A stretch of 64,000 bases of DNA. Source: Treponema parvum (lineage in GTDB: Bacteria; Spirochaetota; Spirochaetia; Treponematales; Treponemataceae). The notes under the pieces were generated by a model that was not told where the DNA came from, searched no databases, and saw only the letters and a program-made list of their open reading frames with translations. Below are positions 5,190 through 10,277 of this stretch, piece after piece. A program made the translations under genes and the position numbers. The stretch is from contig NZ_CP054257.1 in NCBI RefSeq assembly GCF_017893945.1, forward strand, positions 1,798,001-1,862,000, in the 5' to 3' direction. The first letter of the stretch is position 1. Each line of letters opens with the position of its first letter.

Positions 5190-5453
5190 TCTGTAACCTT
5201 TTCATATCAAGCGAAAGCAGACAGTTCAAACGGCCGAGCGCATGTTTTTCAGGGTTATCGTTTCTGTCGGAAACTTCAAGCGCGTTTTTAAATATGTACG
5301 GAACAAGTCCTGCGCTTTTAACAAGAGCGCGGGCGTATTCGGTTTTACCCGATCCGGGAGCACCGTACAGTAAAATATTCACAGTTGTATTATTTTTTAA
5401 AAGGCGCAGTGCCAATTCGCTTTCGTCTTTTTTTATAAAAATTATTTGGAATA
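5190..5453 (-). pseudogene. Remnant of an AAA-type ATPase
   Basis: On the minus strand this stretch encodes a recognisable Walker A segment (LLYGAPGSGKTEYAR) followed by a segment like those after Walker A in AAA ATPases of the ClpA/FtsH type, ending near RLNCLLSLD. No Walker B, sensor or arginine-finger region follows: the frame then runs into the antisense of the WYL gene. No proper start is visible upstream, where the frame overlaps the end of the next gene. I read it as the surviving piece of a larger ATPase gene lost by deletion, consistent with turnover at the left border of the island. Confidence 0.6.
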
Positions 5454-6245
5454 TAACCGGCCAATTTCATCGGCAATGAGCCGGTCTATTTTTCCGTGAA
5501 GCTTACTCCATTCTTCGCGAGTAAGACGTGCTTGAGGATGATACGTTCGCAAGGCGAAATCAATATTTTTTATATTGAAAATACATAATTGTGTATCGGG
5601 AAACGATTTAACTTTTTCTTTGGAAATTACATCAAAGATATGAATATCGGCAATTTTATCTTGAATTACACAATCATAATTCGGACCGGTCAGGAAAATC
5701 AGAATATTCGGTTTAAAAAAATTCAATTCATCTTTTATCAATAAAGACGATTCCCGTACCGCGCTCAGTTTATTAAAATATTTTTTTCCCGACCCTCCTT
5801 TTAGGGCGGTAAGTTTTATAAGATTGTTCCACATAAAACCTGCGGACTTACCATACTTTTTTGCAGTCTGTTGAATCAAGTTCCGTAAACGGCGGTATTC
5901 CTTGTTAAACAGAGCTTTACGAATACCGCCTTTTTTAAATTCAGCATCATCTCCGTTTAACAATTTCATATAGTCGGAATACAAATCGGAATAATCTTGC
6001 GGTTCGTGTCCGTCTTCATAAAAATTCATACTGTCGTCAGGATTATGCCAACGCAAGGCCTCCTGTCCGAAAATCATAACTTTAAGATCGGCATGTTCGT
6101 ATTCAGGCAGAGGACTTAAAAACTGAGGACATAAGAGTTTTTCATCAGCTTTGTGCTGTTTATTCCATTCTTTTACAGCCTCAAAATTACGATCGTCATA
6201 AGCCACATAATAGTCTGCAAAGAATTTTTCATAATCTTTTCCCAT
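5442..6245 (-). CDS. Uncharacterised protein, possibly UDG-like fold
   Basis: 267 residues from the ATG at 6245, with GGAGG nine bases upstream (a GTG at 6251 is too close to that site). I do not recognise a named family. The pattern KVMIFGQEALRW near residue 55, FMWNNLIKL in the middle and LRTYHPQARL near the C-terminus resembles the motif order of uracil-DNA-glycosylase-like enzymes (a GQ loop near the start and a late His-Pro loop). A nucleic-acid or nucleotide base role is therefore possible, but catalytic function is not shown. It has a promoter with a ten-G spacer (6358-6388), so expression may be phase variable. It lies in the accessory island beside the HNH and RNA-repair genes. Confidence 0.6.
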   Translation of the reverse strand: MGKDYEKFFADYYVAYDDRNFEAVKEWNKQHKADEKLLCPQFLSPLPEYEHADLKVMIFGQEALRWHNPDDSMNFYEDGHEPQDYSDLYSDYMKLLNGDDAEFKKGGIRKALFNKEYRRLRNLIQQTAKKYGKSAGFMWNNLIKLTALKGGSGKKYFNKLSAVRESSLLIKDELNFFKPNILIFLTGPNYDCVIQDKIADIHIFDVISKEKVKSFPDTQLCIFNIKNIDFALRTYHPQARLTREEWSKLHGKIDRLIADEIGRLYSK

Positions 6246-6357
6246 TTTCACAAACCTCCAAAATTTATTTTACGAAACTGTCTAAGATAAATTAAGCACT
6301 TTTTAAAATCTGTAATCCATAGTGCAGTACGCTCTTAACCTAACATATCTTCGGTTG

Positions 6358-6388
6358 ATTTTATTACCCCCCCCCCGATTTTTGTCAA
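6358..6388 (-). promoter_or_regulatory. Promoter with a G10 tract in the -35/-10 spacer
   Basis: Minus strand: TTGACA (6388-6383), a 19-base spacer that contains ten consecutive G (plus strand C at 6367-6376), then TAAAAT (6363-6358). Losing two G would bring the spacer to the optimal 17. It drives the UDG-like gene starting at 6245. Homopolymer G tracts in promoters cause phase variation in Neisseria and have been reported for Treponema pallidum genes; activity here is inference. Confidence 0.6.
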
Positions 6389-6455
6389 GTCTTTTGACAA
6401 ATCCTTTACCGAATAGAAAAAACTTTCACTCATAGTGATGTAGCCTCTTGGACAT

Positions 6456-6479
6456 CTCTAAAAACTGCAGTTTTTAGAG
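6456..6479. repeat. Perfect 24-bp palindrome with AAACTGCAGTTT core (repeat family A, copy 1)
   Basis: Both arms read CTCTAAAAACTG. Related palindromes occur at 10252-10277, 16341-16365 and 44574-44606, all intergenic. There is no T run, so simple termination is doubtful. Confidence 0.7.
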
Positions 6480-8450: not shown

Positions 8451-8780
8451 TCATTTTTTGCCAGCATTTCTCACATAAAATCTGTGCCAGCTGTCCAAGA
8501 GTCCACTGATGTTTTCTTTTCCCACCGGATTTGAACTTTGAATGTCATATTCGGGAATGTCGCAATGATGCTGCCGGCAGTAATTTACAAGAAATTTTGC
8601 GCAGTCATAGCCGGATTTTTCTTCACCGAGATCGTGATCAAAACATATCACATCGGGAATACCGTTGCTATTCAAATATTTGCAGAATTCTTCGTAGTTT
8701 TTTGCTCGAGAAACACTATATTTGCCTGTTATGTAATTCTCAGGATCTCTAAGGTCATCCAACCACAATAAACGCTTCAT
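8451..8780 (-). CDS. Cyclic-phosphate-processing receiver-domain protein (cREC)
   Basis: 109 residues matching the small single-domain cREC family: LWLDDLRDP at the start, CFDHDLGEE in the middle and IQSSNPVGKENI near the end. These proteins share the receiver fold with response regulators. They were proposed by comparative genomics to process 2',3'-cyclic phosphate RNA ends in RNA-repair operons. The acidic residues at DD and DHD would form the metal pocket. It lies 100 bases downstream of rtcB on the same strand, which is exactly the context expected for such a role. The ATG at 8780 has only a weak upstream site (GGGAT). No output domain is present, so a two-component role is unlikely. Confidence 0.8.
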   Translation of the reverse strand: MKRLLWLDDLRDPENYITGKYSVSRAKNYEEFCKYLNSNGIPDVICFDHDLGEEKSGYDCAKFLVNYCRQHHCDIPEYDIQSSNPVGKENISGLLDSWHRFYVRNAGKK

Positions 8781-8880
8781 AGTTATCCCAAATCAAACGT
8801 CCGATACGGACTGCCTGAAAGCGGTCGGTTTCTGCGCCGGTTCCGCCTTCGCCGCGCCGGCTTATGCGCCGGATCTCCGC

Positions 8881-10104
8881 TCACTCCGCCGCCTTAAAAT
8901 TGAAAATCGGCTTTATCACGCTGACAATCTCGGCAGTCGGCTCGATATTCGCGGCGATTTCGCTCATGTCTTTATAGGCCATCGGCGCTTCGTCGATAGT
9001 GTCCCTGCATACGGTGGAACTCCATATTCCCTCCATGGATTTTTTGAACTCGTCCATGTTAAGCTTGTATCGGGCTTCTTTCCGCCCCATTACGCGGCCG
9101 GCGCCGTGGGGAGCGGAATAGTTCCAGTCCTCGTTGCCCTTGCCGATGCACACAAGGCTTCCGTCCCGCATATTGATCGGTATCAAAAGCTTTTCCCCCT
9201 TCAGCGCCCGCACGCTGCCCTTTCGCAAAATCATCGCATCGGTGTCTATATAATTGTGGATCGTAGTGAACTGATCAACGACGTCGTGCTTGTCCAAGCG
9301 AAGACCGACGCTGATCGTATCTATCATAGCCTTTCGGTTAAACATGGCAAACTTTTGAAGGATCTTCATGTCATTGATGTAATCTTCAAAGAGAGCGCCT
9401 TCGGCATAGGCCAAAGGCTTAGGAATGTCGGTGATAACGGAGTCTTTGATTTCGGGAAGCAGCCTTGCAATTTCCTCCTGTCTGCCTTCTTCTTTCATCT
9501 TTTTAATGGCATCGCGGATATCCGCTTCTTCAGTGTGATTCAGCTGCTTCCACGCCGCCTCCTGATAATAAGTCGCAACTTCAAGACCGAGGTGACGGCT
9601 TCCCGAATGCACAACGATGTACAAATTTCCGACTTCGTCGCGGCCAGCTTCTATAAAATGGTTCCCGCCGCCGAGCGAACCGAGCGATTTTCTTGCGGTA
9701 TAGATGTTCGCCTTTTTGCAGCGGATTTTATCGAATTCGATCTCTTCCGCAAATTTGTGCTCACGCTTTCGTATATTCCGCCCGAAAGGAATATTTTTTC
9801 TGATACATGCGTCAAGGCGTTCCGGATCGAATTTTTCACTGACCGGCGAATCGGCCTTTATCACAAGAGTTTCCATGCCGCAGCCGATATCAATTCCGAC
9901 AAGGTTCGGACAAATTTTGTCGATGATCGTCATCGTAGTTCCGATCGTACAGCCCGCGCCTGCGTGGACGTCAGGCATCATGCGGATTCTGCTGTCTTTT
10001 GCATACGGCTGATCGCAGAGTCGTTCGATCTGGACGCGGCCGCTTTCATCCAAATTATCCGTAAAGACTTTTGCAGTGTTGTACTTTCCTTTTACTTCTA
10101 TCAT
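8881..10104 (-). CDS. rtcB: RNA ligase RtcB (3'-phosphate / 5'-OH RNA ligase)
   Basis: RtcB joins RNA ends bearing 3'-phosphate or 2',3'-cyclic phosphate to 5'-hydroxyl ends, using GTP and Mn2+. It serves RNA repair after nuclease damage in bacteria. The 407 residues contain the signature segments in order: GIDIGCGM (metal-binding Asp and Cys), GGGNHFIE, VHSGSRHLG (metal His) and APHGAGRVMGR, whose His is guanylylated. The length equals E. coli RtcB. No RtcA cyclase or RtcR activator is nearby; instead a cREC gene follows. The ATG at 10104 has an AAGGA site. The leader exceeds 200 bases and contains two hairpins; the promoter has an inverted repeat at the -35 region. Confidence 0.97.
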   Translation of the reverse strand: MIEVKGKYNTAKVFTDNLDESGRVQIERLCDQPYAKDSRIRMMPDVHAGAGCTIGTTMTIIDKICPNLVGIDIGCGMETLVIKADSPVSEKFDPERLDACIRKNIPFGRNIRKREHKFAEEIEFDKIRCKKANIYTARKSLGSLGGGNHFIEAGRDEVGNLYIVVHSGSRHLGLEVATYYQEAAWKQLNHTEEADIRDAIKKMKEEGRQEEIARLLPEIKDSVITDIPKPLAYAEGALFEDYINDMKILQKFAMFNRKAMIDTISVGLRLDKHDVVDQFTTIHNYIDTDAMILRKGSVRALKGEKLLIPINMRDGSLVCIGKGNEDWNYSAPHGAGRVMGRKEARYKLNMDEFKKSMEGIWSSTVCRDTIDEAPMAYKDMSEIAANIEPTAEIVSVIKPIFNFKAAE

Positions 10105-10251: not shown

Positions 10252-10277
10252 CCTCTAAAAACTGCAATTTTTAGAGG
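10252..10277. repeat. AAACTGCA-core palindrome (repeat family A, copy 2)
   Basis: 26-bp palindrome CCTCTAAAAA...TTTTTAGAGG with one mismatch near the centre, in the rtcB leader between promoter and start. Like copy 1 it is followed by GGTT. Confidence 0.65.

What the first reader, a model, noticed from the sequence alone, without database searches (positions are those of the whole stretch)
6358..6388. Possible phase-variable promoter: G10 in the -35/-10 spacer
TTGACA and TAAAAT lie 19 bases apart with ten G in the spacer. Slippage by one or two G gives 18 or 17, near or at the optimum, so expression of the UDG-like gene could switch on and off. Poly-G tracts of this kind alter promoter strength in Neisseria and have been reported in T. 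pallidum promoters.
Basis: partly seen in the sequence, partly recalled or inferred. Interest (0 to 1): 0.7.

Follow-up and report, generated by a model that had tools for sequence, protein, structure and literature searches.

The report
Slippage-prone poly-G promoter in Treponema
A run of ten Gs sits between the two halves of a near-perfect bacterial promoter in a Treponema-group genome; the same design recurs in about half of the related species, mostly in front of surface-lipoprotein genes and with run lengths that differ between close relatives, so it is probably a known kind of random expression dial, here placed before a uracil-DNA-glycosylase-like gene instead of a surface gene.

Summary
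On the minus strand, TTGACA (6388-6383) and TAAAAT (6363-6358) lie 19 bp apart with G10 (6376-6367) in the spacer, upstream of a UDG-like ORF (ATG at 6245). It is unlikely to be chance: of 14 G>=8 tracts in this 2.63-Mb genome, only this one has a good promoter context (11/12 hexamer match).

No strain or read data exist here for this locus, so switching itself is untested. The design, however, recurs across the genus. TTGACA-...G8+...-TAnnnT occurs 309 times in 91 of 200 species genomes, against 5 hits to the reversed control pattern. In 8 of 12 homologous promoter pairs between genomes the G tract differs in length, although flanks are 90-99.6% identical. Downstream genes are mostly lipoproteins (57/86 with a lipobox, against 1/29 for ordinary promoters).

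T. pallidum tp0126 and Neisseria porA are published precedents, so this is a new member of a known kind. It departs from the class in cargo (a cytosolic UDG-like protein), a longer leader, and a tract 3 bp off the -10. Three related species carry the same kind of promoter before cas12a.

The parts
6383..6388 (-). -35 hexamer TTGACA (6/6 consensus)
6367..6376 (-). G10 tract inside the 19-bp spacer (6364-6382)
   Evidence: the only one of 14 G>=8 tracts in the genome with a good promoter context
6358..6363 (-). -10 hexamer TAAAAT (5/6 consensus), 3 bp after the tract
6246..6351 (-). expected 5' leader of about 105 nt (transcription start inferred about 7 nt after the -10, not mapped); no notable RNA fold
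   Evidence: position inferred; fold z-score 0.65
6255..6259 (-). ribosome-binding site GGAGG
   Evidence: read from sequence
5442..6245 (-). UDG-superfamily-like ORF, 267 aa from ATG (269 aa from GTG at 6251)
   Evidence: relatives match PF03167; no direct family hit
6381..6401 (.). perfect inverted repeat TTTGTCAA-N5-TTGACAAA overlapping the -35; possible operator, or chance
   Evidence: 4 of 100 shuffles have at least one; seen at only one other site of the class
6277..6316 (.). 40-bp decayed dispersed repeat in the leader, shared with two other species; looks like an insertion-sequence end
   Evidence: the IS assignment is inference
6267..6295 (-). weak alternative proximal promoter TTAATT-17-TAAAAT
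   Evidence: consensus match only

Best explanation
This is a sigma-70-type promoter whose spacer contains a slippage-prone G tract, like the poly-G promoter of T. pallidum tp0126. Replication slippage adds or removes Gs, changing the -35/-10 spacing (G8 = 17, G9 = 18, G10 = 19 bp) and so the transcription of the gene about 105 nt downstream. In the sequenced state (19 bp) the promoter should be weak; loss of one or two Gs should strengthen it. The downstream gene encodes a UDG-superfamily-like cytosolic protein in an AT-rich, probably acquired segment. Shown here: the architecture, its genus-wide recurrence and enrichment, and tract-length hypervariability in homologous promoters. Inferred: slippage at this locus, the effect on expression, and that the UDG-like gene is the gene controlled.
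For: Anatomy and rarity by chance. 309 matches in 91/200 genus genomes against 5 for the reversed pattern, and about 42 for poly-C. 8 of 12 between-genome homologous promoter pairs differ in tract length with 90-99.6% identical flanks (one pair shown in full). Downstream genes are a coherent class, lipoproteins (57/86 against 1/29). Ordinary TTGACA-17-TATAAT promoters are enriched in the genus, so these hexamers are meaningful there. Published work: tp0126 optimal at 17 bp, tprE/G/J need 8 or fewer Gs, tprL tracts vary in vivo (PMC7864442).
Against: No length variation could be examined at this locus: no homologue was found. The cargo is not a surface protein, the leader is long (median 32.5 nt in the class, 106 here), and the tract is 3 bp off the -10, whereas 78/89 abut it. 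A repeat remnant lies in the leader and a weak proximal promoter exists. The tract length rests on one assembly, and homopolymer length is error-prone.
Confidence: 0.62

Rival explanations
1. The poly-G promoter is a relic of a lost or displaced surface-protein gene. The UDG-like gene arrived with the AT-rich segment and is driven mainly by its own proximal promoter (6295-6267) or by the repeat end in its leader, so slippage barely affects it.
For: Most promoters of the class precede lipoprotein genes at about 30 nt; here the gene is cytosolic, 106 nt away, and a decayed dispersed repeat lies in between. The segment is AT-rich.
Against: No terminator-like site lies between promoter and gene on this strand. 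The hexamers are intact (11/12), and the proximal pair matches poorly. Three cas12a loci show that the class can serve cytosolic genes through long leaders.
Confidence: 0.22
2. An ordinary promoter with a stable G tract: weak at 19 bp, with no biologically relevant switching.
For: No variation data at this locus; three species share G9 at the cas12a promoter, so some tracts may be stable.
Against: Homologous tracts in the genus vary in 8 of 12 pairs. In T. pallidum most tracts of 8 or more vary (PMC7864442).
Confidence: 0.1
3. Chance: a G tract that happens to lie between two promoter-like hexamers, or an assembly error in tract length.
For: Promoter-like matches alone are common in AT-rich DNA.
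Against: About 0.003 such cases are expected among the genome's 14 tracts, and the same arrangement is strongly enriched across the genus.
Confidence: 0.06

Closest known systems
T. pallidum tp0126 (OmpW homologue) promoter, as described in PMC7864442
   Same: Poly-G between -35 and -10; spacing set by tract length; best at 17 bp; same bacterial group.
   Different: tp0126 encodes an outer-membrane protein and its variation and length-dependent activity were measured; here the gene is UDG-like and neither was measured.
Neisseria meningitidis porA promoter, as described in PMC7864442
   Same: Poly-G in the -35/-10 spacer tunes transcription through spacing.
   Different: A surface porin in an unrelated phylum, experimentally established.
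T. pallidum tprE/tprG/tprJ/tprL poly-G promoters (PMC7864442)
   Same: Poly-G length affects promoter activity; 8 or fewer Gs permissive for tprE/G/J.
   Different: [quoted passage not shown] the window tract is clean spacer.
Poly-G spacer promoters of other Treponema-group genomes (this work)
   Same: TTGACA...G8-14...TAnnnT, spacer mostly 15-19 bp.
   Different: Most abut the -10 and precede lipoprotein genes at about 30 nt; the window promoter does neither.

Membership tests
Phase-variable spacer-homopolymer promoter (tp0126/porA type) | Homopolymer of about 8 or more lying wholly between -35 and -10 | tested here: met
Phase-variable spacer-homopolymer promoter (tp0126/porA type) | Good sigma-70 hexamers, with optimal 17-bp spacing reachable by gain or loss of a few bases | tested here: met
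   11/12 match; G8 gives 17 bp
Phase-variable spacer-homopolymer promoter (tp0126/porA type) | Tract length varies within or between strains at the locus | not testable with these tools
   No reads, strains or homologues of this locus; homologous promoters elsewhere in the group vary in 8 of 12 pairs
Phase-variable spacer-homopolymer promoter (tp0126/porA type) | Transcription depends on tract length | not testable with these tools
   needs a reporter or transcript measurement
Treponema-group poly-G lipoprotein promoters (class described here) | Tract abuts the -10 and the downstream gene encodes a lipoprotein or secreted protein | tested here: not met
   3-bp gap and a UDG-like cytosolic ORF. 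The window promoter works like the class but is an outlier in it; 11/89 sites also have a gap, and 9/89 lack a secreted product
tprL type (tract spans part of the -10) | Tract overlaps the -10 region, so spacing does not change | tested here: not met
   Tract ends 3 bp upstream of the -10
UDG superfamily (PF03167), for the downstream gene | Profile match | tested here: inconclusive
   No direct hit; three relatives at 24-27% identity hit PF03167, the best with 25.1 bits against a cut-off of 24.3; single-sequence structure model failed (pLDDT 35)

The most novel reading that the evidence does not exclude
Poly-G spacer promoters are a genus-wide regulatory class in the Treponema group that gives each species an independently switching repertoire of lipoproteins. 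The class has also been taken up by DNA-acting intracellular genes: this UDG-like gene and, in three related species, the CRISPR effector cas12a. That would put genome defence or DNA processing under random phase variation.
Probability: 0.4. Interest if true: 0.68.

Novelty: new member of a known kind. Interest (0 to 1): 0.47.

Why it matters
Phase variation through poly-G promoters has been documented in T. pallidum for a handful of outer-membrane genes. The census here suggests the same design is common across the wider Treponema group (91 of 200 species genomes), mostly before lipoprotein genes. Several of those genomes are gut or rumen assemblies, judging by the titles of matched records. 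The window case and the cas12a cases suggest that the switch is not confined to surface antigens. Each site can be tested by counting Gs in sequencing reads.

Tried and rejected
Homologues of the locus for tract-length comparison: none found. A DNA search of 98 genus genomes found only dispersed repeats; protein searches found only distant relatives or nothing.

Structure of the UDG-like protein: the single-sequence model was unusable (pLDDT 35), so no fold search was made.

RNA-leader switch: the leader folds no better than shuffles.

Operator reading of the inverted repeat over the -35: expected in about 4% of shuffled windows and not shared by the class; left open.

'Spacing 17 is avoided': an apparent dip at 17 bp in the first 89 sites shrank in a broader set without the two richest genomes; dropped.

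Signal/TM class as a discriminator: also common downstream of ordinary promoters (16/30); only the lipobox class was used for the comparison.

Full report
OBSERVATION. The minus strand reads TTGACA (6388-6383), AAAATC, G10 (6376-6367), TAA, TAAAAT (6363-6358): a 19-bp spacer, exactly as described. The tract is intergenic, between an HNH-endonuclease ORF (7199-6663, PF13392) and the UDG-like ORF (ATG 6245, GGAGG at 6259-6255). A random position in the window is flanked by an exact TTGACA and a >=5/6 -10 at promoter spacing at a rate of 2.3e-4. The own genome (2,626,237 bp, one contig) has 14 G>=8 tracts. Scored the same way, this tract has 11/12 hexamer matches; the next best has 9/12 and lies inside a coding frame. 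The feature is real and unlikely to be chance.

THE DOWNSTREAM GENE. The 267-269 aa product has no direct family hit. Relatives at 24-27% identity in other spirochaetes share GQE, [FL][TS]GxxYD and RxYHP motifs and match the UDG superfamily PF03167, one of them above the curated cut-off. 'UDG-like' is therefore a fair name; glycosylase activity is untested. The gene lies in a 33-36% GC stretch (about 5.5-8.5 kb) of a 45% GC window, probably acquired. No counterpart turned up in the plasmid, phage, viral or species-genome collections, and only distant relatives among 393 spirochaete genomes.

THE ARCHITECTURE RECURS. The pattern TTGACA-N0-10-G8-N0-9-TAnnnT has 309 matches in 91 of 200 genomes of the same genus, against 5 matches of the reversed pattern. 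Overlapping matches are counted separately in both. With C8 instead of G8 there are about 42 matches in 17 genomes, so G on the non-template strand is preferred. In 11 rich genomes about a fifth of all G>=8 tracts lie in this context (130 matches for 598 tracts). In a phylum sample the matches concentrate in the same family. The genus is Treponema in the broad sense: two matched contigs coincide in position and strand with records named Treponema sp. RGIG3210 and UBA3819 (L092, L149). The species of the window was not determined. Ordinary TTGACA-17-TATAAT promoters are also enriched over their control, so these hexamers are meaningful in this group.

WHAT THE CLASS DRIVES. Of 89 sites examined, 86 have a downstream ORF. 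57 of those 86 encode a protein with a lipobox, against 1 of 29 for ordinary TTGACA-17-TATAAT promoters (Fisher p about 7e-10; with one site per genome 22/32, p about 5e-8). The lipobox call is a simple pattern, not SignalP. Most ORFs start 20-60 nt after the -10. The tract abuts the -10 in 78/89 sites.

THE TRACTS VARY. With tracts removed and flanks aligned, 12 between-genome pairs of homologous promoters were found. In 8 the tract length differs (G13/G9, G12/G9, G10/G9, G10/G8 twice, G9/G8 three times), although flanks are 90-99.6% identical. The G161/G141 pair is shown in full. Paralogous copies within one genome also differ (G14/G11, G11/G10, G9/G8). These are species-level comparisons of assemblies, several of them metagenomic, so small length errors are possible.

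LITERATURE. In T. pallidum the tp0126 poly-G lies between -35 and -10 and is best when spacing is 17; tprE/G/J need 8 or fewer Gs; tprL tracts vary from 7 to 11 within isolates; 76% of 17 further poly-G tracts were clearly variable; porA of Neisseria is the mechanistic parallel (PMC7864442). Searches of the held library found no genus-wide survey of such promoters and no phase-variable Cas12a. The library is incomplete, so this is not proof of novelty.

MECHANISM. Most likely slippage changes the spacer: 19 bp now, 18 or 17 after loss of one or two Gs, with strength rising towards 17. Shown here: anatomy, recurrence, and variability of homologous sites. Inferred: variability at this site, the effect on RNA, and the link to the UDG-like gene. 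Points against the last step are the long leader (106 nt), a 40-bp decayed repeat within it that looks like an insertion-sequence end, and a weak proximal promoter.

EXCEPTIONS TO THE SURFACE-GENE RULE. Three related species have the same kind of promoter (TTGACA, 19-bp spacer with G9 set 2-3 bp off a perfect TATAAT) ahead of cas12a. Two of these loci were read at length and include cas4-, cas1- and cas2-like ORFs (named by recall and position) and a CRISPR array; Cas12a itself was confirmed by profile. About 22 cas12a loci in the genus have enough upstream sequence to judge, and 3 carry the poly-G promoter, all with G9. The window promoter resembles these in spacing, in tract offset and in a long leader before a cytosolic, nucleic-acid-related gene.

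VERDICT. It is a new member of a known kind of promoter, with unusual cargo.

Noticed in passing
L287 7658-7628 (-), L289 (G586), L288 8541-8511 (-) / L313: Poly-G spacer promoters (TTGACA, 19 bp with G9, TATAAT) about 100-135 nt upstream of cas12a in three species of the genus; two loci read at length have CRISPR arrays and neighbouring cas-like ORFs. Potentially phase-variable Cas12a.
   Followed up: partly
window 6456-6479 and 10253-10276: Perfect 24-bp palindrome CTCTAAAAACTGCAGTTTTTAGAG, a second near-copy in the window, and many copies dispersed through own and about 30 other genomes of the genus. Function unknown.
   Followed up: no
window 6277-6316: 40-bp stretch 85-90% identical to sequences in two other species, where it sits beside what looks like the start of a decayed transposase; probably an insertion-sequence end. 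A shorter match occurs elsewhere in the own genome.
   Followed up: partly
own genome C1 704950-704961 (L012) and 726637-726645 (L014): G12 and G9 tracts inside reading frames of two Acyl_transf_3 acyltransferase genes 22 kb apart: likely coding-type contingency loci, perhaps for surface polysaccharide.
   Followed up: partly
own genome C1 2023355-2023369 (L020) and 2345883-2345897 (L022): Two 15-base G/C tracts, longer than the promoter tract; one follows a T run, the other lies near the end of a short frame on the opposite strand.
   Followed up: no
genomes G088, G586, G061 and others: A smaller set of promoters with poly-C instead of poly-G in the spacer, often TTGACATAC8-9...TATAAT.
   Followed up: no
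window 8451-10104 (-): A cREC_REC (cyclic-phosphate processing receiver, PF20274) ORF lies next to an ORF that resembles the RNA ligase RtcB (by recall, not tested): possibly an RNA-repair pair.
   Followed up: no
L082-L161: The poly-G spacer promoter pattern also appears in gut Clostridia, Bacilli, Saccharibacteria and Alphaproteobacteria genomes; downstream genes not examined.
   Followed up: no
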